DNA of 64,000 nucleotides from NCBI GenBank assembly GCA_040218145.1, contig JAVJQK010000071.1, positions 1-64,000 on the forward strand, in the 5' to 3' direction. The DNA is from Sandaracinaceae bacterium (GTDB lineage Bacteria > Myxococcota_A > Polyangia > Polyangiales > Sandaracinaceae). A program made the position numbers and the translations under genes. Below are positions 1 through 10,978 of this stretch, in pieces (within the stretch, counting starts at the first letter, position 1; each line of letters opens with the position of its first letter). The notes under the pieces are model-generated. The model saw nothing but the letters and a program-made list of their open reading frames with translations. It was not told the origin of the DNA and ran no database searches.

Positions 1-311
1 TGACAAGACCCCTCGGCCCTCGACGCGCGACTCGGCGTCACTCCTCCTCGAAATACTCGAGGTATTCCTCGTCGTCGTTCCTTGATTCGCGCGCCGATGG
101 CTCGCGGGGTTTTGCCAATCACTGCTGATCCGGGTGACTAGGTGGATGGACCAACGACAGGGCCCGAGACCCGAACCAGGGCCAACGACAACGAAGACCG
201 GAGACCCTGGACCGAACCAGGCCCAACGACAACCATGCCCGGCTTGCCGGCCGAGAGGGTACGACGGCCGAGCTCGGCGAGCGAGGATCCCCCCTTTGAC
301 GATCGTGCCGA
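1..311. other. Gene-poor left edge with short repeats
   Basis: I see no intact gene here. Positions 38-118 read on the minus strand as the acidic C-terminal tail of a protein with no start, listed separately. Positions 175-194 and 214-233 hold an imperfect 20-bp direct repeat (one mismatch, core AACCAGG-CCAACGACAAC), 39 bp apart, which I cannot explain. The stretch looks like intergenic or decayed DNA. Confidence 0.5.
38..118 (-). pseudogene. Possible C-terminal remnant of an unidentified protein
   Basis: Reading the minus strand, an open frame of 27 codons ends at a TGA at 38-40. It begins right after an in-frame stop at 119-121 and has no convincing start. It codes a very acidic tail ending NDDEEYLEYFEEE, which looks like genuine protein sequence rather than random GC-rich translation. 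I do not recognise the family. It could be the tail of a gene cut off by rearrangement, or chance. Confidence 0.2.
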
Positions 312-713
312 TCAGCAGCAGCGCTGCTTCTGCTTGCCGTAGGTCTTCCAGCCGAAGACCTCGCGGTAGAACGCGGCTGAGTCGAGCGGCTCGTGCGCGA
401 ACGCGTCCCGGTAGCGTGCATCGAAGCCCCTACTGGACCCGGTTCCGAAGGCCTGACGCTCCACGGCCACGGCAGCGAACCCCGCGCCGTGGCGATCGCG
501 TGCGCACAGCGCGCCTTCGAAGGGGAGGGCGATGAGCTCGCCGCCTCGCTCGAGGATCGTTCGGCGACAAGCGGCGGTGCTCTCGACCTCGACGTACGTG
601 AGCCACCGCGACGTTCTTCTCGCCGCCCAACCCCAGCCGCGCCTCGCCGAGCGTCGCACTCGAAGCGCGAAGAGCTCCGCGTAGAACTGCCGCCGCCTCG
701 ACCCTCCTGAGGC
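312..713 (-). pseudogene. Frameshifted, truncated VOC (glyoxalase-fold) gene
   Basis: The minus strand keeps recognisable pieces of a glyoxalase/bleomycin-resistance (VOC) protein in two frames. One frame opens with QFYAELFAL right after the stop of the upstream gene. The next frame gives ATLGEARLGLGGEKNVAV. The first frame then resumes with WLTYVEVESTAACRRTILERGG and ends at a second domain start, SAAFYREVFGWKT, just before a stop near 312. This pattern implies two compensating frameshifts plus loss of the second VOC domain. Intact two-domain VOC proteins are roughly 250 residues; about 130 remain here. No function is expected. Confidence 0.7.
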
Positions 714-1649
714 TCACCGCGCGCGCGGCGCCGCCGGAGGCAACGTCAACGTCGAGACGGTCACGCGACCCGCCCGGCTGACGTGGGCCACGAGGACGGT
801 CTCGTCATCGACGACGGCGGGGGCAGAATATGCGGGGTACGTCACGTCTCCAGCGATCCGGGCGGCCGACCATCCGCCTTCACCGACTCGCAGCCCGTCT
901 TCGTGCACGGCGACGTACAGGGCCATGTCGTCGCATCGGTCGCCGGGGTCGCAGTACCTCGGACGTGCGAGGAAGGCTGCCGCAACGAGGTGCTCTCCCA
1001 GGGCTGCTCGAAGCCTCCCCTCGATCTGACCGCCGGGTGTAGGCGGGAACAAGGGGAACACCTCATCGAGGTGGTCGATCCGGGCAGGGAGCACATGCCG
1101 CCTCACTCGACCCTCGCTGGCGTCGAGACGTCGAACCGTCGCGGTGGGGATGAGCCGCGGCGCATCCCGCTCCTCTTCGAGAGCGAGGAGCACTTCGAGC
1201 GGGGAGAGCTGGCGAGCGACGACCTGCCCCGGACCGATGTCCACCACCAGCCGTCGCGTCGCGCTGGCGCGGAGGTGGATGGTCCAGACGTCGTCGTAGC
1301 TCCTCGCGCGGACGGGCTGCAGGGCGTCCAAGCGCAGCTCCGGATCCCTGTCGGCGACCTCGCTCAGAAGCACCTCGTGGGATTCCTGGGTCCATGCGCC
1401 AGAGGCATCTCGTCGGCACACGCCCAGCCGCAGCTGCTCATCGCCGAGGCGGGCGCCGTAGGCACCGAGAAACACGAGGCCTCGAGGGACGCCTTGCCCA
1501 TCGAGGACGAACACGGGTCGCTCCCGTTGCCCCTCCCCGACGGATTCGTGCGACACGCTCGCTTCCGGCAGGGCACGTGGGACCGGCGGCGGCCAGGGCG
1601 TGCCTGCGCACGCCGTCAACGTGGACATGAAGAAGATCCCCCATCGCAT
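714..1649 (-). CDS. Putative lipoprotein of unknown function
   Basis: Encodes about 311 residues. I chose the ATG at 1649 because it starts a short basic and hydrophobic signal ending in the lipobox LTAC, and a GGGAGAG-like ribosome site lies about 11 bases upstream. The frame is open further upstream to 1745 but that part does not look like protein. After the signal comes a Pro-rich linker, then a mixed alpha/beta region rich in short beta-like stretches (ARSYDDVWTIHLRAS, RRLVVDIGPG) and a Cys pair near the C-terminal third (YCDPGDRCDD). I do not recognise a family. It is probably an outer-membrane-anchored protein. Its stop directly abuts the decayed VOC gene downstream. Confidence 0.7.
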   Translation of the reverse strand: MRWGIFFMSTLTACAGTPWPPPVPRALPEASVSHESVGEGQRERPVFVLDGQGVPRGLVFLGAYGARLGDEQLRLGVCRRDASGAWTQESHEVLLSEVADRDPELRLDALQPVRARSYDDVWTIHLRASATRRLVVDIGPGQVVARQLSPLEVLLALEEERDAPRLIPTATVRRLDASEGRVRRHVLPARIDHLDEVFPLFPPTPGGQIEGRLRAALGEHLVAAAFLARPRYCDPGDRCDDMALYVAVHEDGLRVGEGGWSAARIAGDVTYPAYSAPAVVDDETVLVAHVSRAGRVTVSTLTLPPAAPRAR

Positions 1650-1781
1650 CGCGTCGGCTCTCCCTACGGCGCGGCCGACCATCCCCTCCCCCCGCCACGC
1701 GCATCTCGTCGAATCTGATGACCTGTCTCGCGCAATCGTGATCACTCGTTTCGCTCGTTCATGATCGCCGCAGTGCTGGGA

Positions 1782-1866
1782 GGGACGCTCTTCGTCATAT
1801 CGTCATAGCTGGAAGCAGCTGGATTGATTGAGCTTTCCCGAATGACGATAAGACGAAGAGCGTCCC
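1782..1866. repeat. 85-bp inverted-repeat element, copy A
   Basis: Two 25-bp arms (1782-1806 and 1842-1866) beginning GGGACGCTCTTCGTC are inverted copies of one another with a single mismatch, around a 35-bp centre. Copy B at 3729-3813 differs from this copy at only one position I can find. Outer flanking bases (GCTGGGAG on the left, CGAGGCGTAGCC on the right) are also shared, so the full repeat is about 104 bp. There is no coding capacity. It resembles a REP/MITE-type hairpin element and sits just upstream of the GTG/ATG region of the lipoprotein gene. Confidence 0.8.
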
Positions 1867-2353
1867 CGAGGCGTAGCCTCCCTGAGGCGGGGAGCGCGCT
1901 CGGCTTCGCGGGCTTCTTCATTGGCTCGGCTGCCTACTTCGACCTGGTGCTCGGGGAGGCGGTGACGTGGCGCCTCGACTCCACGCAGGTGCGCTCGCGA
2001 TCGCGATGTCCCAGATCGGACTGACCATCTGGGCGATGGAACGCGCTCGAAGGTGGCTCGGCGGGTCATGTGCCCGCCGCGCAATCAGCCCCCCCCGCCC
2101 GCCGCGCAGCCCTATGTGCTCCTCGGCCGCCGCGAGGGAGTTGCTCCAGCGGGTGCAGGCGGTCATCGACGCGCTGTAGCGCCATCGGAGGCCGCCAAAC
2201 CACACGGGTCGGGAAGGCTTGACCGGCGCGTTCGTACGCTCCGGCGGTGTCCGTCCATCTCCTCCCGTCTGCGGTCCCCGACCCGCCCGCTCACTTGCCA
2301 TCGAGGCCTCATGTGGCCCCTCGCTGCTCGCGTCGCCGCGCTTGGAGCGTCCG
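1867..2353. other. Non-coding or decayed stretch, possible membrane-protein remnant
   Basis: No intact gene. On the plus strand one frame around 1900-1970 reads GFAGFFIGSAAYFDLVLGEA. A second frame around 1985-2060 reads ALAIAMSQIGLTIWAMERAR. Both look like membrane helices and could be the frameshifted remains of one small membrane protein, but this is weak. Positions 2073-2092 hold a 20-bp sequence (CCCGCCGCGCAATCAGCCCC) repeated exactly at 5342-5361. Confidence 0.3.
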
Positions 2354-3508
2354 ATGAGGGTCGTCGAGGCGCGCGAACGCCATAGAGCGGCCTCCGGCGG
2401 GCCCGAGTCGCCACCCGAGGTCCACGGCGAGCTGAGGAGCCTCATCGCCGAGCTCAGGGAGCACCCACAGATCAAGGTGTCGAAGCGCAAGGCGCCGCGC
2501 CGAAAGCCAGAGAAGAGCCGGGAAGTCCTCGAGTTCGCGCGCACCGTGAGCGGCCTGTCGATCCCGGACGCGTGGCTCCCACTCTGCGCCGAGACGCCGC
2601 TCAAGCTCGAATGGAAGGTCGACGGGAAGGTCGAGGGTGGCTGCCGGCTCTGGCCGCTCGACGACTCCCCGGACATCTATGCCCCGCCCCTCGTGCAAGA
2701 CCAGGACGGCAACCGCATCGACTTCAACCAGATGCCCCCGCGCGGCGAGGGCTGTACGCCCTACGACGAGGTCGAGCACGCCGCGTCGGGCGTGGTGATG
2801 CGGGCCGAGCAGGGCGCCGAGGGGCCTCAGCTGTGGTACTACGATTACTCGCGCGCAGCATGGCAGCTGGACCTGAGCCTGCCCGACTACCTCCGCTGCA
2901 TGCGCCGCGCCCGGGCGGTGCACGGCTGGCAGCGCCTGTACTGCCCGTTCGGTCGCAACGACGACGGGCTCGGTCTCTTGAGCCAAACGCTGGACCGCAT
3001 CACCGAGCTCTTCGGGCCCGAGGCGGTGGAGCAGATGGACATCACCGCCAACAGCTCCGCGAACCTCGCGCGGCTGCGTGAGCTGCGTGAGATGGAGGGC
3101 TGGCCCGAGCAGGCGCACCATCTGATCCGCCAGCCCGTGCTGGTCGTCTCGCTCTCGTGGCCGCTGGTGCAGAACGAGCCCCGCTTCAGAGAGCTCGCCT
3201 ACCCACGCGACGGAGCCTTTTACGTGATCTCTCCTCTCGTCGAGCCGCTGACGCGCTTCGAGGAGCTCGAGGAGAGGGGCTCGACCGACGCGCGCGAGCA
3301 GGACGCGATCGTGACAGCGGTCCTGGACTGGTTGCCCGACGAGATCTTCAGGACGTACGAGGCCAGGACGGTGTTCCTGACGCCCGTCGACGGTCAGCTG
3401 CCCTTCTCGGTTGGCTTTCACGACCTCCCGGCCGCCCAGCTCCACGAGGCGTTCGCGGACTGGGGCTTCTCGGTCTACACCGAGGCCGATCTGCCCTCGA
3501 CCGGCTGA
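2354..3508 (+). CDS. SUKH (SMI1/KNR4)-like protein
   Basis: Encodes about 384 residues. The ATG at 2354 is preceded by GGAG seven bases upstream and is preferred over the open but Pro/Arg-rich extension to 2219. Residues about 45-120 (GLSIPDAWLPLCAETPLKLEW, then a LWPLDD strand) match the pattern of SMI1/KNR4 domains, where a Pro-led helix is followed by a Trp/Leu-rich strand pair. SUKH proteins are often immunity proteins against contact-dependent or polymorphic toxins, but no toxin gene is adjacent. The C-terminal 200 residues are unrelated to anything I know. The gene is bracketed by direct copies of the 85-bp element. The family call is moderate and any immunity role is inference. Confidence 0.6.
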   Translation: MRVVEARERHRAASGGPESPPEVHGELRSLIAELREHPQIKVSKRKAPRRKPEKSREVLEFARTVSGLSIPDAWLPLCAETPLKLEWKVDGKVEGGCRLWPLDDSPDIYAPPLVQDQDGNRIDFNQMPPRGEGCTPYDEVEHAASGVVMRAEQGAEGPQLWYYDYSRAAWQLDLSLPDYLRCMRRARAVHGWQRLYCPFGRNDDGLGLLSQTLDRITELFGPEAVEQMDITANSSANLARLRELREMEGWPEQAHHLIRQPVLVVSLSWPLVQNEPRFRELAYPRDGAFYVISPLVEPLTRFEELEERGSTDAREQDAIVTAVLDWLPDEIFRTYEARTVFLTPVDGQLPFSVGFHDLPAAQLHEAFADWGFSVYTEADLPSTG

Positions 3509-3537
3509 CTCCCCGGCCTAGAGGCGCTGCGCTTCTC

Positions 3538-3672
3538 TCAGCATACGGCCGCCGACACCCCCAGCCGCTCGAGGCCCGGGATCACCGCGCCCTCGATCGT
3601 GCCGTAGAACACCTCCCGCGCGAGCGTCGGGTCATCGGCGCCGAGCGCGATCTCGGGCTCACTGAGCCCTGC
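3538..3672 (-). pseudogene. C-terminal fragment of a TetR-like regulator
   Basis: The minus strand reads an open frame ending with TGA at 3538-3540 and coding GADDPTLAREVFYGTIEG and AVIPGLERLGVSAAVC. This is the style of the last helices of a TetR/AcrR regulator, where pairs such as DPxLAxxVFxGxIEG are common. The frame runs straight into the left-half copy of the 85-bp element at about 3671 with no start or helix-turn-helix. The regulator therefore seems to have been cut by the repeat or by a rearrangement next to it. Confidence 0.45.
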
Positions 3673-3680
3673 TGGGAGGG

Positions 3681-3707
3681 GGGACGCTCTTCGTCATAGC
3701 TCGAAGC
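3681..3707. repeat. Partial left arm of the 85-bp element
   Basis: GGGACGCTCTTCGTCAT followed by AGCTCGAAGC repeats the left arm and the first bases of the centre of copies A and B. The last eight bases of the arm are missing. It lies 48 bp before copy B. Confidence 0.7.
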
Positions 3708-3728
3708 CGCTGAGCCCTGCTGGGAGGA

Positions 3729-3813
3729 GGGACGCTCTTCGTCATATCGTCATAGCTCGAAGCAGCTGGATTGATTGAGCTTTCCCGAATGACGATAAGA
3801 CGAAGAGCGTCCC
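3729..3813. repeat. 85-bp inverted-repeat element, copy B
   Basis: Same structure as copy A: 25-bp arms at 3729-3753 and 3789-3813 with one mismatch between them, and a 35-bp centre that differs from copy A by one base. With copy A it forms a direct repeat 1.95 kb apart that encloses the SUKH-like gene. Half copies lie on either side (3681-3707 and 3841-3865), suggesting repeated insertion or recombination at this spot. Confidence 0.8.
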
Positions 3814-3840
3814 CGAGGCGTAGCCCGTCGAGTGATCGGA

Positions 3841-3865
3841 ATGACGATAAGACGAAGAGCGTCCC
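3841..3865. repeat. Right-arm-only copy of the 85-bp element
   Basis: These 25 bases are identical to the right arm of copies A and B (ATGACGATAAGACGAAGAGC onward) and are followed by the same CGAGGCGT flank. There is no left arm or centre. Confidence 0.7.
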
Positions 3866-3960
3866 CGAGGCGTTGCCTCGACTGATCGCGACGCGCCCGA
3901 CTTGATCACGCCGGAGCTCGAGGCGACGGAGATCGACGCGCCCCGCGCCACACGGCGACG

Positions 3961-4956
3961 TCAGGCGCCGGGGAAGCGCACGTAGGCCTCGACGAGCAGG
4001 CGCGCGAGCGCGTCGTCGTCAGGGCGCTCGTCGATGCGCCCGCGGGCGCGGAGGTCATCGACGAGGCGGTCGATCACGGCCTCCTGCGTCAGCGCGTCCG
4101 CCCCCGACGCGACCAGCGCGACCTCGTCTTCGTCGCGGTAGCAGTTGGCCTTCCACTGCACGGAGAGCCGAACCTCGGGCCAGCCGTAGCTCGCGAGCTC
4201 CTCGCCGTCTTTCGCGAGGTGCCAGCGCTCGTCGGCGTCGGAGAAGGTCAGGGTGCCCCCCGGCTCGACGGGCGGCGGAGGCGCGTCGTCTCCGCCCACG
4301 CGGTCGACGCCGTGGAACGTCCCGTCGACGTCGAGGTGGATTGCGGTGTTGAAGCGCGGCGAGACGGTCGCCGGCGCGGCGTCGGGGCCGTCCGGGTAGA
4401 ACACGAAGTCGCCGCCCTCGCAGTCGTTGAAGAAGGCGACGCCGGCCGTGACGTGTTTGCGGTGCGACTCGAAGAGCCCCGAGTGGTGCATCACGACGAG
4501 GAACCACTCGGGCACCTTCCACTTGTCGAGCCCGCGGTACTCCGGCGTGTCGGTGTGCAGCGGCAGCTCCTGCCCCGGCAGCAGGATGTTCGCGTAGAGC
4601 ATCGTCGGCCGCACGAGCGGGCGCCCGGTCAGCTCGGCGGCCGCGCTCGCGAGCTCGCTCGACTCGAGCACCGGCTCGATGCCGGGCAGCTGCACCTCGG
4701 AGTGCTCGAAGAAGACGCTGCGAAAGAGGTTGATGCGGCTCATCACCTTCGACGGGTCCTCGTGCCGACCGAAGCGCCCGCCCGTCATCAGGTGGTTCAT
4801 CGCCGCGTCGTGCCGGCGCACCATGCCCGCGCCGAAGCCGTGCTCCACGGGGCCCTCGACATAGACACCGTAGGCGCCTCGCTGCGCGCAGAGCTGACGC
4901 ACGCGCTCGGCCACGGGCGCCTCGAGGAAGGGGTCGAAGGTCTGATGAGTTCCCAT
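3961..4956 (-). CDS. 2OG-Fe(II) oxygenase-like protein
   Basis: Encodes about 331 residues. The ATG at 4956 has a strong AGGAGG site nine bases upstream; the open frame continues to 5394 but that extension is not protein-like. The jelly-roll oxygenase pattern is visible: H134-x-D136 in LPLHTDTPEY, a third metal ligand candidate at H215 (TFHGVDRV), and R263 in RLSVQWK as the likely 2-oxoglutarate salt bridge. The stretch FFNDCEGGDFVFYPDG is the hairpin typical of prolyl-hydroxylase-type folds. It is probably a cytosolic Fe(II)/2-oxoglutarate dioxygenase with unknown substrate. It has no operon partner. Confidence 0.7.
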   Translation of the reverse strand: MGTHQTFDPFLEAPVAERVRQLCAQRGAYGVYVEGPVEHGFGAGMVRRHDAAMNHLMTGGRFGRHEDPSKVMSRINLFRSVFFEHSEVQLPGIEPVLESSELASAAAELTGRPLVRPTMLYANILLPGQELPLHTDTPEYRGLDKWKVPEWFLVVMHHSGLFESHRKHVTAGVAFFNDCEGGDFVFYPDGPDAAPATVSPRFNTAIHLDVDGTFHGVDRVGGDDAPPPPVEPGGTLTFSDADERWHLAKDGEELASYGWPEVRLSVQWKANCYRDEDEVALVASGADALTQEAVIDRLVDDLRARGRIDERPDDDALARLLVEAYVRFPGA

Positions 4957-5411
4957 GGCGTCGATCCTCCTGCCGCGTTGTACCCCCTCGCGCGCCCGCT
5001 TGTCCCGCGGGCCGAGGTGTCTCGCTGCCTCGTGGTCGACCTCACCACGCGCCCACGCGACGACCGAGGCGCTCTGCGCGCGCGCCTCGGAGACAACCAG
5101 CGGGCGGCTCGCGAGGTCGTCTCGCCCGTGCTCACGACCCGTGCTCACGAGAGGGGCGTCGGCGGGGAGCGCTTCGCCGCGGGGCGCCTCACCCGCGAGC
5201 GCGCCGTTGATGCTGAGCCACCGGCCGAGGAGCGCGGCGCGCTCGTCTCCGCGAACGCACGAGAGGCAGGGGCCGCGGACGAAGGGGCTCGATGTCGAGA
5301 AGCGGAGCCGCGTGCCGAGCTTCCTGGTGCGCGACGAGCGTCCCGCCGCGCAATCAGCCCCTCGGGAGAGCCACGTCCACGACGTGATGGTCACCGAAGA
5401 GGACGGGTCAC
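4957..5411. other. Gene-free stretch
   Basis: Open frames cross this region on both strands but none reads as convincing protein, and the strong ribosome site at about 4965-4970 marks the true start of the oxygenase. Positions 5342-5361 are an exact 20-bp copy of 2073-2092. I see no terminator hairpin. Confidence 0.4.
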
Positions 5412-5819
5412 CTATCCGGCCTTCACCTCCGGAAAGGCCTCACCCAGCAAGATCTCTCGGCCCTGGTCCACGTTCGCGGAGGTCAGCTTCCAGCGCTTCG
5501 GGTCCTCGAACTCGAAGAACATCTTCAAGGCCTTGTCGCGCCTCCGGATGGCGAGCAGGCACTTGATCCACGGCTCACCATCTTCCCCCGTGCTCAGCGC
5601 TCGGAAGCGCAGGAAGGCCCGGGCGGCGGTGCGCTGATCCGTGCCGAGACTGATGAGCCGGCGCTCCCTTCCGTAGTAGCGGAAGATCTCGCCACCGTAG
5701 CTCTGCCCGTCGGTGGGTTCGAACACCCATCCGGCGTAGTCCCACTCGTCGCCCTCTGCATTCGCCCGGCGCAAGAGGATACCGCCGACCTCGTGCACGA
5801 GATCCGTCTTCTCGCTCAT
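5412..5819 (-). CDS. Small conserved-looking protein of unknown function
   Basis: Encodes 135 residues from an ATG at 5819, with GAGGG about seven bases upstream. It has no signal peptide or membrane segment, so it is probably cytosolic. The alternating pattern EIFRYYGRERRLISLGTD, then EPWIKCLLAIRRRDKALKMF and FEFEDPKRWKL, loosely resembles DUF600/YezG-type immunity proteins, where a Trp-Lys strand is followed by an acidic FxFEDxxxW strand. That match is by eye only. The promoter region upstream is the 41-bp-phased palindrome array, so this gene is the natural candidate for control by it. Confidence 0.65.
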   Translation of the reverse strand: MSEKTDLVHEVGGILLRRANAEGDEWDYAGWVFEPTDGQSYGGEIFRYYGRERRLISLGTDQRTAARAFLRFRALSTGEDGEPWIKCLLAIRRRDKALKMFFEFEDPKRWKLTSANVDQGREILLGEAFPEVKAG

Positions 5820-5859
5820 GCCATTCCCTCACTCATCGAGCCGGACCATACTCCCACAA

Positions 5860-6241
5860 CCGAGAAAACTCAGCTGAAACTGAGAACGGAAGCCTCGCAA
5901 CTGGGTACGCCCAGTCAGATTGATATGCGATCTCGACTGGACTGGGAGATCTCAGTCAGTTTGATTGTCGTTCTCGGCTGGGTTGGGAAATCCCAGTTCA
6001 TCTGAGAATGGAAATCGACTGAACTGGGAAATTCCAGTAGGTTTGATTTGCGTTCTCATCTGCCCTGGGAATTCCCAGTCAGTTCGAGAGACACTATCAA
6101 CTGAACTGGGTGGGCCCAGTCCAGTTGATTCACTCTCTCAATCTCGCTGAGCGCTCCCAGTTGGAGGCCTGCGATCTGGCTTCGAGCTCGGTGCGGCCAG
6201 TCCGAGGCGCCGACGAGGCAGTTCGAGCTCGGTAGCCCCAC
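5860..6241. repeat. 41-bp-period array of 14-bp palindromes
   Basis: Seven clear 14-bp palindromes of form CTGGG-N4-CCCAG start at 5901, 5942, 5983, 6024, 6065, 6106 and 6147, exactly 41 bp apart each time. The one at 6065 (CTGGGAATTCCCAG) is perfect. Degenerate units continue the phase at 5860 and near 6187 and 6228. The 27-bp intervals are also related (consensus near TCAGTTTGATTTGCGTTCTC) and are themselves weakly palindromic. The interval at 5997 looks like the reverse complement of its neighbours. The array is visibly richer in AT than the coding DNA around it and fills the space between two minus-strand genes. Confidence 0.9.
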
Positions 6242-6280
6242 CGAGACGGTCGGCGCGTGTCTCCGGACGTGGGCGAGGCA

Positions 6281-6961
6281 TCAGCCCGCCTGGGGCCCGA
6301 AGTGCGGGTTGGTCTGGCGGACCACCGCCAGCGACGCGTGCTCGCCGCCGTACGCGTGTCCCGGGTACAGCTCCATGTCGTCGGGCAGCTTGGCTAGCCG
6401 CTGCGTGAGCGTGCGTCGCATCTCGTCGGGGTCACCGCCCGGGAGATCGACGCGACCGCAGCCCTGCAGGAACAGCGTGTCGCCTGCGACGAGCGCGTCA
6501 CGGACCCGGAAGCACGACGACCCCGGCGTGTGCCCGGGCGTGTGCAGCAGCTCGATCTCCACCGCGCCGACCTCGATCTTGTCGTTGGCGGCGTGCCGGA
6601 CGAAGTCGCTCTCGCTCAGGCCGGTGACCTTCCGGATGCCGTCGACCTCGAGCTCGTGCGCGTGCACCTTGCAAGGGTTGAGCGCCATCAGCTCAGCGAG
6701 GCCCTCGATGTCGATGCCGAAGATGTGCCCGCCGACGTGGTCCGGGTGGTAGTGCGTCGCGAGCGCGCCGGTGATCGTCATGCCGTCCTCGGCCGCGCGC
6801 TCCACGATGTCGCCGATGGCCCACGCCGGATCGACCACCACGCACTCTCCCGCGTCGCGGTCGCCGACGAGGTAGACGAAGTTCTGCATCTGCGCGCCGG
6901 CGGGGTTGCCCCGGCCGACGTCGCGGCCGACGAGGAGCTGGCGGATGTAGAGCGTGCGCAT
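6281..6961 (-). CDS. MBL-fold hydrolase, glyoxalase II-like
   Basis: Encodes 226 residues. The metallo-beta-lactamase motif THYHPDHVGGH (H70, H72, D74, H75) is intact. Later ligands follow in LLHTPGHTPGS, LVAGDTLF and LYPGHAYGG, so a dinuclear metal site is expected. Size and motif order match glyoxalase II-type and persulfide-dioxygenase-type thiol-ester hydrolases. The N-terminus reads LVGDRDAGECVVVDPAW, the usual first strands of the fold. It is likely cytosolic. The ATG at 6961 has only a weak ribosome site. The exact substrate cannot be told from sequence. Confidence 0.85.
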   Translation of the reverse strand: MRTLYIRQLLVGRDVGRGNPAGAQMQNFVYLVGDRDAGECVVVDPAWAIGDIVERAAEDGMTITGALATHYHPDHVGGHIFGIDIEGLAELMALNPCKVHAHELEVDGIRKVTGLSESDFVRHAANDKIEVGAVEIELLHTPGHTPGSSCFRVRDALVAGDTLFLQGCGRVDLPGGDPDEMRRTLTQRLAKLPDDMELYPGHAYGGEHASLAVVRQTNPHFGPQAG

Positions 6962-7123
6962 GGCGCCGATCTAATCTGCGCCCGGCGACCCGTCGAGGTT
7001 GCGCGGGGCGGCGGTCGAGCAGCCGACTCCCGTGACCCACTCCTCGCCCATCGTCACCGAGCGGATCATCGACGCTGCCCCCTGATCGGCTGGCGCGCCA
7101 TCAGCGACGGAGAGGGGCCCGTC

Positions 7124-7438
7124 CTATCTTCCGGCCTCGTCTCCGCGGATCTCTTTCGGAGAGCGCCGGAACCTGCCCAGGCAGAAGCCGCGCAGCTCGG
7201 CCATCCTGGCGCGGGTCACGTAGGCCACCAGCGCCGCGACCACCAACGTCGCGCGCGAGGTGTGCAGCGCGAGCGTCGCCAGCTCGCCATCGCCCCAGGC
7301 CCGCGGCTCATGGAGCACGACGCCCACGACGAGGGCGAGCGCGACGGCGATCAGCGCCCACAGGTTCCAGGTCTGGTAGCGCCCACGAAGGGCGGCTTGC
7401 TGCGCCGGGTCGTCGGCGGTCTCCTCGAGCATTGGCAT
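7124..7438 (-). CDS. Small two-helix membrane protein
   Basis: Encodes 104 residues from an ATG at 7438, with GAGAGG seven bases upstream. There are two predicted membrane helices, LWALIAVALALVVGVVL and TLALHTSRATLVVAALVAYV, joined by a short loop. The cytosolic tail is basic and then acidic. The frame is open upstream to 7798 but that part overlaps the divergent protease gene and is not protein-like. I do not recognise the family. It diverges from the protease gene at 7596. Confidence 0.65.
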   Translation of the reverse strand: MPMLEETADDPAQQAALRGRYQTWNLWALIAVALALVVGVVLHEPRAWGDGELATLALHTSRATLVVAALVAYVTRARMAELRGFCLGRFRRSPKEIRGDEAGR

Positions 7439-7595
7439 GGTTGACCTCTCGCTTTGGGTCGCGAGCCTCCGCTGCGCAGGGACGCGCGGAGTCTCGTGAC
7501 CCCAGCTGGAGCCCCGTGGGCGCCAGCGCAGGCTCCACGGCCCCCGTCCTGCCCCCGGCGGGACGAGGAGCACGAACCTTGCACAAGTGGTCGGC

Positions 7596-8864
7596 ATGCG
7601 CCTCCCGCTGCCTCTCGCGCTCTCCGCCCTCGCGCTCGTCGCCTGCGCCGCGCCCACCGACGGGGGGGACGTCCGCTCCCGCGGCGCCGCGCTCGACATG
7701 ACCTTCGAGGAGTTCCTCGAGGGCTCGTACCGCGAGCCCTTCGAAGGCGGCCAGTGGATCGTGAACGGAGACACCCCCGTCGCCACGGTCGAGGGCATGC
7801 GCGAGGTCTACGAGCGCATCGGGACGCGACAGCGGAGCTACGGGAGCGGCGACGCGCCGGCCGACGGCGCGCTCACCCTCAACACCGTCGGCGGCGCCGA
7901 CGACCGCTGGTCGGACACGGACCAGCGCGCGCTCACCTACTGCGTCAGCGCCGGCCTGTTCGGGGGCCGCTACGACGAGGTGGTGCGGGTGATGGCGGAC
8001 GCGGCCCGCGCGTGGGAGGCGGTGGCGGACGTCGGCTTCGTGCACGTCTCGGACGAGGACGCCGCGTGCGACGCGTCCAACCCGCGCGTGGTCTTCGACG
8101 TGCGCCCGGTCGACGTGGACGGGGAGTACCTGGCGCGCGCCTTCTTCCCCAGCTCGTCCCGCGCCCAGCGGAACGTGCTCATCGACGTGAGCGCCTTCTC
8201 CCTGGGCGGCGGCGGCGTCGACCTGCTCGGCGTCATGCGCCACGAGCTGGGTCACGTGCTCGGCTTTCGCCACGAGCACACCCGCCCGGAGGCCGGGACC
8301 TGCTTCGAGGACAGCGCGCACCGTCCGTTGACGCCGTACGACCGCGACTCCGTGATGCACTACCCACAGTGCAACGGGAACATGAGCTCGCGCCTCGAGA
8401 TCACCGCGCTCGACGCGCAGGGCGCGGCCCTCGTCTACGGCGAGCCCGGCGCCGCGCCCGGCCCCGGGACGCCGGGGGCCACTCCCTCGATCCCGTCGCC
8501 GGCGAGGCCGGCGCCGCGGATCGACCCCTTCGGCGCGGAGACGCCGCCCGAAGAGCGCCCGCCCGCGCCGCCTCCCGAGGAGCCCTCGACCGGCGCGTGC
8601 CGCACGGGCTCGGGCGCGCTCATCCCGGGAGAAGTGCACCGCTACCCCACGCTGGACGTGCCGGCGGGGCGGACCATCACCATCACCACCCGCGGCGCGG
8701 GGGACGCGGACCTCTACACCTGGATGCAGGGCGCGAGCGGTGGCTGCGCGAGCGAAGGCCCGACGAGCGAGGAGGGGTGCGTGCTGACGTCCGACGGGAG
8801 CGGTCTGCGGGTGGACGTGGTCGGCTTCGACTTCGCGACCTACGAGCTCCGCGTCTGCTTCTGA
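7596..8864 (+). CDS. Secreted zinc metalloprotease (metzincin-like) lipoprotein
   Basis: Encodes about 422 residues, starting at the second ATG (7596), which begins the signal RLPLPLALSALALVAC with a lipobox. The catalytic motif HELGHVLGFRHEHTR (H216, E217, H220, H226) fits the metzincin HExxHxxGxxH pattern. SVMHY about 45 residues later is the Met-turn. The catalytic domain spans about residues 100-290. A Pro-rich linker follows, then a C-terminal domain (residues about 335-422) with the layout of a bacterial pre-peptidase C-terminal domain, ending in a Cys. It is probably anchored in the outer membrane and degrades extracellular protein. The family call is firm; the substrate is unknown. 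Confidence 0.85.
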   Translation: MRLPLPLALSALALVACAAPTDGGDVRSRGAALDMTFEEFLEGSYREPFEGGQWIVNGDTPVATVEGMREVYERIGTRQRSYGSGDAPADGALTLNTVGGADDRWSDTDQRALTYCVSAGLFGGRYDEVVRVMADAARAWEAVADVGFVHVSDEDAACDASNPRVVFDVRPVDVDGEYLARAFFPSSSRAQRNVLIDVSAFSLGGGGVDLLGVMRHELGHVLGFRHEHTRPEAGTCFEDSAHRPLTPYDRDSVMHYPQCNGNMSSRLEITALDAQGAALVYGEPGAAPGPGTPGATPSIPSPARPAPRIDPFGAETPPEERPPAPPPEEPSTGACRTGSGALIPGEVHRYPTLDVPAGRTITITTRGAGDADLYTWMQGASGGCASEGPTSEEGCVLTSDGSGLRVDVVGFDFATYELRVCF

Positions 8865-8903
8865 GCCCCGCGCTCGCTCGGGGGCGTGGGGTACTCTCTA
8901 CCC

Positions 8904-10574
8904 ATGAACCGAAGCTGGCTCGCGCTGGGGTTGCTCTTCTGTGCGTGCGGCGAGGCGCCCACCGACGCCTGCACCGCCGACGGCGACTGCGCGAGCGGCG
9001 AGCTGTGTCGCGACGGGGTCTGCGAGGCGGCGCCCGACGCCGGCCCGCCCGAGACCGACGCGGGATCGCCCGACGTCGACTCCGGTCCGGGCGCCGACGC
9101 GGGGCCGTGCGCCGCGTGCGGTCCAGGCGAGGCGTGCGAGGTGGACGCGTGCGTGGCCGACTGCCGTCGGGCCGACGCGGCGCCTTGCGAGGTAGACAGG
9201 GTGTGTAGCGACGCGAGCGGGGCCTGCGTGGAGCCCGGCGAGGAGTGCACCCCTGGAGGCGACTTCGTGGCGTGCGGGGGCGCCGAGTTCCCGCCCGTCT
9301 GCGGTCCCGGCACCATGTGCGAGGGGAGCGCGTGCGTCGCGGTCGCGCCTTGCGCTTCGGTCACGTGCGACGCGGTGGGCGTGTGCCGCGGCGTCGACTG
9401 CGGCGCGACGGGCGGCAGCGTCAGCGGGGTGACCCTCGACCCGATCACCGATGCGCCGCGCGGCGCCGCTGGCGGGCTCGCGGTCGGCGCGACGGTGGCG
9501 GGCGAAGATCTGTGCGGGCAGACGGTCACGTTCGAGGTGCGCGTCGAGACGGCGCTCTACACGAGCGCGGGGAACGACGGCGCGGTGTTCGAGGTCGACC
9601 TCGTGACCGGCGCGCGCTCGGCCTACATCATGGGCCTCCCGCTCGTGTTCGGGCTCGTGACCGACCCCGTCGGCGCGCTCTACGTGCTGCGCTCCGACAC
9701 GTGCGAGGTGGGCCGGGTCGTGGGGCCGCCGGGCGCGCGCACGTTCGATCCGCTCGGCCCGGGACCCGCGGGCTGCTCTCGCCTCGCGGTGGGCTCCGAC
9801 GGTGGGCTCTACGTGAGCGGTGGTCTCGTCGTCGACCGCATCGATCTCTTCACCGGCGCGGTGAGCCGCTACGGCGACATCCCCGACGGGGTGGCGCGCT
9901 GGGGCTCGACCTTCCTCACCGGCCTGGCGTTCGCGTCGGACGGCTCGCTGATCGTGGGCGAGCACTGGGACTCGCTCTTCTCGATCGCGCCGGGCGGCGG
10001 GACCGGCACGCCGTACGCGACCGCGCCGCCGCTCGCGCTCACCAGCGGGGACAACCCGTGGAACGAAGGCATGGCGTTCGATCGCGCGGGGCGGCTCCAC
10101 GTGGGCGTGTTCCCGAGCAACCCCGCCGCCGGGTTCGTCTACCGGGTGAACGCGGACCTGACCACCGAGGTGGTGGAGGATCTCGCCAGCATCCGCGCCG
10201 ACGTGCCGACCACCGACCACACCGGCATCCACGGCGTCGCGTTCGGGCTCGACGGGGCGATGTACTTCACCAACCAGAACACGCGCGGCAACACGCGCGA
10301 GCCGTTCGGGCAGCTGCTCGTGCGTCGGACCGACGGCACCGTCGAGGTGGTCGCGGACGGCTTCAACTTCGACTGGCCGCGCGGCTACGACGGTGACCTG
10401 TTCGTGGGCACGCGCGTCGCCGACTCCGCCACCGCGGTGGTCGGCCTCGACGGTCGCGCCACCGCGACGCTCGACGTGCCCGACATCGCCGGCGCGTACG
10501 AGGTGCGCGTGTTCGTGACCGACCCGGAGAGCGGGCGGGTGTACAGCGACGCCGACGCCGCGCGCACGCTCTGA
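8904..10574 (+). CDS. Cys-rich lipoprotein with NHL/SMP-30-like beta-propeller
   Basis: Encodes about 556 residues. The ATG at 8904 starts a signal ending LLFCAC. Residues about 20-150 form a Cys-rich, Asp/Ala-rich region with repeated short units such as CTADGDCASGELCRDGVC, common in surface proteins of this group. Residues about 165-520 contain propeller-blade motifs (DPVGALYVLRSD, GSDGGLYVSGGL, FDRAGRLHVGVF, GLDGAMYFTNQN) of the NHL or gluconolactonase/SMP-30 type. I see no clear catalytic residue set, so a binding role is as likely as an enzymatic one. It lies 39 bp after the protease on the same strand and may share its message. Confidence 0.75.
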   Translation: MNRSWLALGLLFCACGEAPTDACTADGDCASGELCRDGVCEAAPDAGPPETDAGSPDVDSGPGADAGPCAACGPGEACEVDACVADCRRADAAPCEVDRVCSDASGACVEPGEECTPGGDFVACGGAEFPPVCGPGTMCEGSACVAVAPCASVTCDAVGVCRGVDCGATGGSVSGVTLDPITDAPRGAAGGLAVGATVAGEDLCGQTVTFEVRVETALYTSAGNDGAVFEVDLVTGARSAYIMGLPLVFGLVTDPVGALYVLRSDTCEVGRVVGPPGARTFDPLGPGPAGCSRLAVGSDGGLYVSGGLVVDRIDLFTGAVSRYGDIPDGVARWGSTFLTGLAFASDGSLIVGEHWDSLFSIAPGGGTGTPYATAPPLALTSGDNPWNEGMAFDRAGRLHVGVFPSNPAAGFVYRVNADLTTEVVEDLASIRADVPTTDHTGIHGVAFGLDGAMYFTNQNTRGNTREPFGQLLVRRTDGTVEVVADGFNFDWPRGYDGDLFVGTRVADSATAVVGLDGRATATLDVPDIAGAYEVRVFVTDPESGRVYSDADAARTL

Positions 10575-10594
10575 GGCGACGCTCCGTCGTCGCC
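10575..10594 (+). terminator. Weak hairpin after the propeller gene
   Basis: GGCGAC (10575-10580) and GTCGCC (10589-10594) form a 6-bp perfect stem immediately after the stop. No T-tract follows, so its role as a terminator is uncertain. Confidence 0.25.
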
Positions 10595-10633
10595 ATCGAA
10601 CGCACGCAGGCTGCGCGCGGACCGTCGAGCGGC

Positions 10634-10978
10634 TCAGAGCTCGAACATCATCGCGCCGAGCGCCACCAGGACGACGAAGGCGAGCAGCGCGACGAAGAGC
10701 AGGGCGCGTCGAGGGACACCGGACCCCTGCTCGGCGTACGCCCGGACGAGCTTCGCGGCGCGCTCACCGTTGCCCGCCAGCACGAGCTTGCGGACCTGAT
10801 CGAAGGCCGTCTGCCCGTGCGCCTCCACCAGGAGCTCCTGCGCCCGTCTCAGCACGATCCCTCGCTCGTACTCACCAGCGGGAAGACGCTCGAGCTCCTC
10901 CGCGAGCGTCTCGAGCGGGTCGGGTGTCTCTTTGGCCACGTCCTCCGAATAGCACGCCGCGCCCGAGCCCGAGGGCAC
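10634..10978 (-). CDS. Small single-helix membrane protein
   Basis: Encodes up to 114 residues from a GTG at 10978. A GTG at 10939 is an alternative start, with GGAGG almost touching it. The soluble part is helical and charged (ETLAEELERLPAGEYERGIV). One C-terminal membrane helix follows, ALLFVALLAFVVLVALGAMM, ending at the last residues. This makes it a tail-anchored-like protein with its bulk in the cytosol. I do not know the family. It is 36 bp upstream of nothing obvious and follows the TPR lipoprotein gene's stop region on the same strand order. Confidence 0.6.
   Translation of the reverse strand: MPSGSGAACYSEDVAKETPDPLETLAEELERLPAGEYERGIVLRRAQELLVEAHGQTAFDQVRKLVLAGNGERAAKLVRAYAEQGSGVPRRALLFVALLAFVVLVALGAMMFEL

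What the first reader, a model, noticed from the sequence alone, without database searches (positions are those of the whole stretch)
1775..3878. Two near-identical 85-bp hairpin elements bracket a SUKH-like gene
Copies at 1782-1866 and 3729-3813 have 25-bp inverted arms and differ by one base in the whole 85 bp. They are direct repeats 1.95 kb apart, and half copies surround the second. The enclosed gene is SUKH-like, a class often involved in immunity to toxins. A tetR tail is cut off right at the cluster. Element-mediated movement or recombination of the segment is a simple explanation.
Basis: partly seen in the sequence, partly recalled or inferred. Interest (0 to 1): 0.6.

Follow-up and report, generated by a model that had tools for sequence, protein, structure and literature searches.

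The report
Hairpin repeats bracketing swapped genes
In a marine myxobacterium, short hairpin repeats of the kind spread by a single-strand transposase sit in one-way arrays, and comparison with a second genome of the same species shows that the genes between them are swapped or gained and lost at the repeat borders.

Summary
Two 85-bp elements (one mismatch between them) with 25-bp inverted arms lie at 1782-1866 and 3729-3813. They belong to a family of about 46 copies; 45 are exactly 85 bp, in about 20 clusters, all in one orientation within each cluster. The element is a head-to-head dimer of the terminal inverted repeat that flanks an HUH tyrosine transposase of the RAYT/TIRYT type. One such gene lies inside one of the clusters. 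In relatives, such dimers are abundant only in genomes that carry a cognate transposase; arm sequences match in every case where the dimers were listed.

The cargo idea holds at this locus. A second genome of the same species (G056) has the same flanks and both elements. Between them it has a 1.33-kb GAF/adenylate-cyclase gene instead of the 1.84-kb SUKH-like gene; breakpoints are 15 and 11 bp from the elements. Of 15 gene-sized differences in 263 kb of alignment, 10 have an edge within 30 bp of a repeat tip (3.6% expected; 22% counting only intergenic sites).

The element kind is known (TIR/REPIN dimers). The polar arrays and their role as gene-swap borders are new to me. What does the swapping is not shown. 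The tetR tail was not confirmed.

The parts
1782..1866 (-). 85-bp element copy 1 (head-to-head TIR dimer; strand = family consensus orientation)
3729..3813 (-). 85-bp element copy 2, same orientation as copy 1
3681..3712 (-). partial copy (one arm plus part of the centre)
   Evidence: absent from the conspecific genome
3841..3865 (-). partial copy (single arm, within a 52-bp tandem duplication)
1882..3717 (.). variable segment between the two elements; replaced by an unrelated 1.33-kb segment in genome G056
2354..3508 (+). enclosed ORF, 384 aa, distant SUKH-like protein, no homologue in 55 relatives
714..1745 (-). left flanking ORF, part of the block conserved in G056 (window 408-1881, 99%)
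3961..5394 (-). right flanking ORF, part of the block conserved in G056 (window 3718-10839, 98%)

Best explanation
The 85-bp elements are non-autonomous dimers of the terminal inverted repeat (tip CGGGGACGCTCTTCGTC) of a TIRYT-type HUH tyrosine transposase, a REPIN-like arrangement. The transposase spread them, largely locally, so that each cluster holds its own subfamily in one orientation. Because the near-identical, same-way-round copies with shared short flanks lie between single genes, they now act as repeated borders: gene-sized segments between repeat tips are replaced, gained or lost between strains. Shown: the element family, its match to the transposase ends, the polarity, the clean swap in the window, and the excess of breakpoints at repeat tips. 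Inferred: that the transposase made the copies, and that most swaps are homologous recombination between dimers (within the chromosome or with incoming DNA) rather than transposase-catalysed cassette movement.
For: Family of about 46 copies, 45 of exactly 85 bp; 32 of 32 of 85 bp in the conspecific genome. A transposase gene (L003:7402-8295) lies between elements in cluster C122; all five members of alignment A1 carry HUH and the catalytic Tyr of class 2 and match NCBIfam REP_Tyr_transpos below its cut-off, and the relative modelled has a DnaA-DBD-like C-terminal domain. Inverted repeats of 18 bp or more, mostly beginning GGGGACG, flank the homologues. TIR dimers number 20-40 in five genomes and 0-4 in 51 others; all five have a cognate TIRYT (Fisher p 5e-6), and G024 and G052 each have two TIRYTs and two matching dimer families. 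Same orientation in every cluster. Window swap. 10 of 15 variable segments have an edge within 30 bp of a repeat tip, null 3.6%, p 7e-12; strictest null (intergenic sites, array contigs only) 10 of 13, p 2e-3.
Against: Four of the 15 variable segments have no edge near a tip. Some insertions touch a tip on one side only. No excision product, transposition event or recombination intermediate was seen. Only two genomes of the species were compared, one of them a fragmented MAG (84% complete). The polarity is not tied to a measured replication direction (GC skew too weak).
Confidence: 0.72

Rival explanations
1. The transposase itself moves the cassettes: two dimers or two tips are cut on single-stranded DNA and the gene between them is excised and inserted, as in IS200/IS605 peel-and-paste.
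For: Breakpoints lie at the outer tips (3-20 bp in several cases); elements keep one orientation in each cluster, as lagging-strand-specific insertion would give; one pure insertion in C138 abuts an element.
Against: No constant cleavage position: edges vary from 3 to about 60 bp from the tip; no target-site signature at empty sites; many segments touch a dimer on one side only.
Confidence: 0.15
2. Integron-like cassette array: the 85-bp hairpins are attC-type sites used by a tyrosine recombinase.
For: One-way arrays of equal-length hairpins about one or two genes apart; strain-specific, often orphan genes in the segments.
Against: No integron integrase above the cut-off (best 85 of 265 bits; the control genomes also ring below the cut-off); no attC R'/R'' core at the ends; genes lie on both strands; the repeats match TIRYT ends instead.
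Confidence: 0.04
3. Passive marker: accessory genes turn over at intergenic hot spots for other reasons and the elements merely tolerate the same places.
For: Elements are almost all intergenic and favour convergent gene pairs; the excess shrinks when only intergenic sites are allowed.
Against: The excess remains (edges p 1e-5, segments p 2e-3 in array contigs) and several edges fall within 20 bp of a tip.
Confidence: 0.15
4. Assembly artefact: misjoins at repeats imitate swaps.
For: Both genomes are fragmented and many contigs end in repeats.
Against: Each counted difference returns to collinearity on both sides; 85 bp is shorter than the 141-bp overlap seen between contigs here; the SUKH segment is not found elsewhere in G056.
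Confidence: 0.06

Closest known systems
TIRtrons / TIRYT and their TIR repeat families (Di Nocera 2013, PMC3733652; TnpAY1 subclass 2.1 of Quentin 2018, PMC6006769)
   Same: HUH tyrosine transposase with a C-terminal HTH/DnaA-like domain, flanked by long inverted repeats with a GGGG-rich tip; TIR copies elsewhere as dimers and clusters.
   Different: The tip here is GGGGACG[ACG]TC, one base off the published GGGGWSAS. Dimer length is fixed at 85 bp with a polar centre, copies form one-way arrays, and variable genes lie between them. These points are not in the passages read.
REPINs (Bertels and Rainey 2011, PMC3116915)
   Same: Two inverted repeats forming one hairpin, non-autonomous, cognate transposase near a cluster, tandem copies that include flanks.
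   Different: No GTAG-tagged REP; arms have 25 bp; the passages read do not describe REPINs as borders of exchanged genes. In Pseudomonas, strain-specific genes fall into REP deserts (PMC3390384), the opposite of what is seen here.
Minimal mobile elements and dRS3 repeat arrays of Neisseria (reviewed in PMC3898611)
   Same: Different whole-gene cassettes between conserved genes in different strains; repeat arrays proposed to promote gene exchange.
   Different: There the cassettes are taken in by homologous recombination alone, and dRS3 is a 20-bp repeat; here the borders are dimers of transposase ends, many of them in series.
Integron cassette arrays (general knowledge)
   Same: Equal hairpins in one orientation separated by single genes; strain-variable cargo.
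   Different: No integrase, no attC core, genes on both strands.

Membership tests
TIRtron/TIRYT-derived TIR repeats | HUH and catalytic-Tyr transposase of TnpAREP class 2 (Y---NP) | tested here: met
   H60xH62 and Y120 invariant in five homologues; YxHRNP in four of them, NV in the C87 copy; REP_Tyr_transpos matches all five, below the equivalog cut-off
TIRtron/TIRYT-derived TIR repeats | C-terminal helix-turn-helix / DnaA-type domain of subclass 2.1 | tested here: met
   HTH_23 in one member; model of the L067 homologue matches DnaA-DBD 3pvp, TMt 0.74, prob 1.0, but E 0.46
TIRtron/TIRYT-derived TIR repeats | Transposase gene flanked by inverted repeats with a GGGGWSAS-type tip | tested here: met
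   TIRs flank the gene in all close homologues and most distant ones; some distant ones show GGGGACAG exactly, ours differ at one base
TIRtron/TIRYT-derived TIR repeats | Same TIR present elsewhere as dimers or clusters | tested here: met
   40 pattern matches here; 20-28 in four relatives with a cognate TIRYT; 0-4 elsewhere
TIRtron/TIRYT-derived TIR repeats | Transposase binds, cuts or moves the repeat | not testable with these tools
   needs biochemistry or population sequencing
REPIN (GTAG-tagged REP doublet) | GTAG/GTGG tag at the foot of each REP | tested here: not met
   arms begin CGGGGACG
Integron attC | Cognate IntI integrase | tested here: not met
   no match over the cut-off
Integron attC | GTTRRRY/RYYYAAC core sites at the ends | tested here: not met
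   the 46 copies lined up begin GGGACG and end CGTCCC
SUKH superfamily (enclosed gene) | Match to a SUKH profile | tested here: inconclusive
   no direct Pfam match; pairwise E 5e-7 to a Pfam-positive SUKH-1 protein; single-sequence model too poor to use

The most novel reading that the evidence does not exclude
The polar 85-bp dimers are working recombination sites of the HUH transposase, which excises and inserts single-gene segments between them: an integron-like gene-capture system that runs on a REP-type single-strand transposase instead of an integrase.
Probability: 0.13. Interest if true: 0.9.

Novelty: new variant of a known kind. Interest (0 to 1): 0.6.

Why it matters
REP-like repeats are usually discussed as genomic parasites or as RNA and supercoiling signals. 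Here they coincide with the borders of genes exchanged within a species, and each transposase can be paired with its own repeat family. That makes it testable whether such repeats supply the homology, or the enzyme, that shuffles accessory genes in large genomes.

Tried and rejected
Rfam families: no credible match. Pfam Y1_Tnp missed the C122 transposase; it was found by reading the locus. Integron integrase: none over the cut-off. Replication-direction test of polarity by GC skew: too weak. Defence profiles for window ORFs: none. Solved structures by sequence for the transposase: none; only the C-terminal domain of the model was reliable. A possible 'empty site' at L002:7676-7885 turned out to be a 212-bp direct repeat, not an element-free copy. 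Cross-family empty-site search was not useful: the enclosed gene is an orphan and the elements are absent from relatives of other genera.

Full report
WHAT IS THERE. The window is the start of contig C71 (140 kb) of an 11.06-Mb genome in 148 contigs. The two 85-bp copies, their arms and the half copies are as described. The element is GGGACGCTCTTCGTC-T-TATCGTCATT, a 33-nt centre, then AATGACGATA-T-GACGAAGAGCGTCCC. The arms pair except for a T:T mismatch at positions 16/70, kept in 41 of 45 full-length copies. Genome-wide there are about 46 copies, 45 of them exactly 85 bp, in about 20 places, often in series: ten in C80, seven in C141, five in one cluster of C122. C71 probably continues into C109, which adds three copies to the window cluster. 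The 141-bp contig overlap that suggests this is itself a repeat, but a contig of the conspecific genome also joins C109 to window position 408.

CLUSTERS ARE ONE-WAY AND HAVE THEIR OWN SUBFAMILY. The centre differs between clusters and gives the element a direction. In every cluster with two or more comparable copies all point the same way; one divergent copy in C122 could not be oriented. Leaving out close tandem pairs I count 23 independent comparisons, chance 1e-7. The same holds in the conspecific genome, where all 32 copies found have 85 bp. Short flanks of about 12-20 bp are also shared within a subfamily and sometimes tandemly repeated, as reported for ordered REPIN clusters (PMC3116915). 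Of 45 scored copies 44 are intergenic in DNA that is 87% coding; 22 lie between convergent genes, against 16% of gaps in general (p 1.5e-6).

THE TRANSPOSASE. Between elements in cluster C122 lies a 297-aa gene (L003:7402-8295) whose family has the HUH motif and the class-2 tyrosine motif. Each of five members matches REP_Tyr_transpos below its strict cut-off. The C-terminal domain of the modelled relative resembles the DnaA DNA-binding domain, as described for TnpAY1 subclass 2.1, which probably equals the TIRYTs (PMC6006769, PMC3733652). The decisive point is the ends. Most homologues in relatives are flanked by inverted repeats that begin GGGGACG or GGGGACA, each with its own continuation. 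A generic dimer pattern gives 40 matches here, 28 in G004, 20 in G024, 27 in G044 and 21 in G052, against 0-4 in 51 other genomes and 0-1 in controls. All five have a cognate transposase (p 5e-6). G024 and G052 each have two transposases and two dimer families, and the arms match the transposase ends one to one; for G004 only the count was seen, not the sequences. The 85-bp element is therefore a dimer of TIRYT ends. In G024 the arms covary: ten of 33 pairs changed on both sides and none on one side only, so hairpin pairing is maintained or templated there.

THE SEGMENT BETWEEN THE ELEMENTS IS SWAPPED. G056 is a second genome of the same species. By its 13,879-base contig it is the MAG Sandaracinaceae MED-G138 (inference). 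Its contig C277 matches window 408-1881 at 99% and 3718-10839 at 98%, both elements included. Between them it holds 1.33 kb unrelated to the window's 1.84 kb. Similarity ends 15 bp beyond element 1 and resumes 11 bp before element 2. The G056 segment encodes a GAF plus adenylate/guanylate-cyclase protein; the window segment encodes the SUKH-like orphan, which has no match elsewhere in G056.

IS THAT GENERAL? In 263 kb of alignment I found 15 differences of at least 300 bp that return to collinearity on both sides. Ten have an edge within 30 bp of a repeat tip GGGACG[ACG]TC, against 3.6% expected per segment; the tips belong to this family or to another one, GGGACGATCCTATTCATTCGTC. A third family, GGGACGCTASGTTGACTTGT, lies at one breakpoint too. 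Edges of gene-sized differences tend to be intergenic, and so are the repeats, so I repeated the test with intergenic sites only: p 2.5e-4 for segments over all contigs, and p 2e-3 when restricted to contigs with arrays (10 of 13). Contigs with arrays carry about eight times as many such differences per kb as the aligned part of 40 arbitrarily chosen G056 contigs. The array contigs were chosen for having elements, not for being variable. Differences of copy number in tandem pairs also occur (C80, C130, C49).

HOW IT WORKS. Shown: dimers of transposase ends, one-way arrays, exchange at their borders. Inferred: TIRYT-driven local spread on single-stranded DNA would account for fixed length and polarity. 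Direct repeats of 85-115 bp then allow deletion or replacement of the gene between them by homologous recombination. Because edges vary from 3 to about 60 bp from the tip and show no constant target signature, I favour recombination over direct transposase-catalysed cassette movement.

STANDING. The element kind is known. New to me are the GGGGACG[ACG]TC type in Sandaracinaceae with one-to-one transposase pairing, the rigid polar 85-mer arrays, and their coincidence with gene exchange inside a species. The nearest parallel is the Neisseria repeat arrays and minimal mobile elements (PMC3898611). Pseudomonas shows the opposite, strain-specific genes in REP deserts (PMC3390384). Literature searches found no description of such arrays in Myxococcota, but the library is incomplete.

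Noticed in passing
own genome, 31 places (e.g. L005:3795-4121, L008:5784-6068, L012:4173-4499, L013:5475-5801): A four-helix-bundle (23S_rRNA_IVP, PF05635) gene sits in a ~1-kb repeat, about 79-90% identical between copies, found at many contig ends; about eight of 31 copies lie within ~1.2 kb of an 85-bp element, far more than chance.
   Followed up: partly
G024 dimers, alignment A3: 71-bp dimers of a related family differ at ten stem pairs, always on both sides at once and never on one side only, as if one arm were copied from the other.
   Followed up: partly
L001:9952-10036 with gene 10004-10609(-): An element overlaps the 3' end of a HIT-domain gene and supplies its last ten codons and stop codon (GTLIVISSLG*).
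   Followed up: no
own genome and G056, e.g. C80:42995-43060, C23:4700-4740, C141:19280-19303: A second repeat family, GGGACGATCCTATTCATTCGTCAAACTC, has 18 exact-arm copies in 1.18 Mb; it also marks segment breakpoints, and its ends resemble the TIRs of the C87 transposase. A third family is GGGACGCTASGTTGACTTGT.
   Followed up: partly
window 1-141: A ~140-bp repeat at the contig start is present at a dozen or more places in the conspecific genome.
   Followed up: no
window 5855-6279: A stretch of CTGGGA-type repeats that is imperfectly self-complementary over about 300 bp and has a second copy in G056 (C656).
   Followed up: no
L016:1260-2030 (C35): Tandem array of right-half elements embedded in a larger GC-rich repeat.
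   Followed up: no
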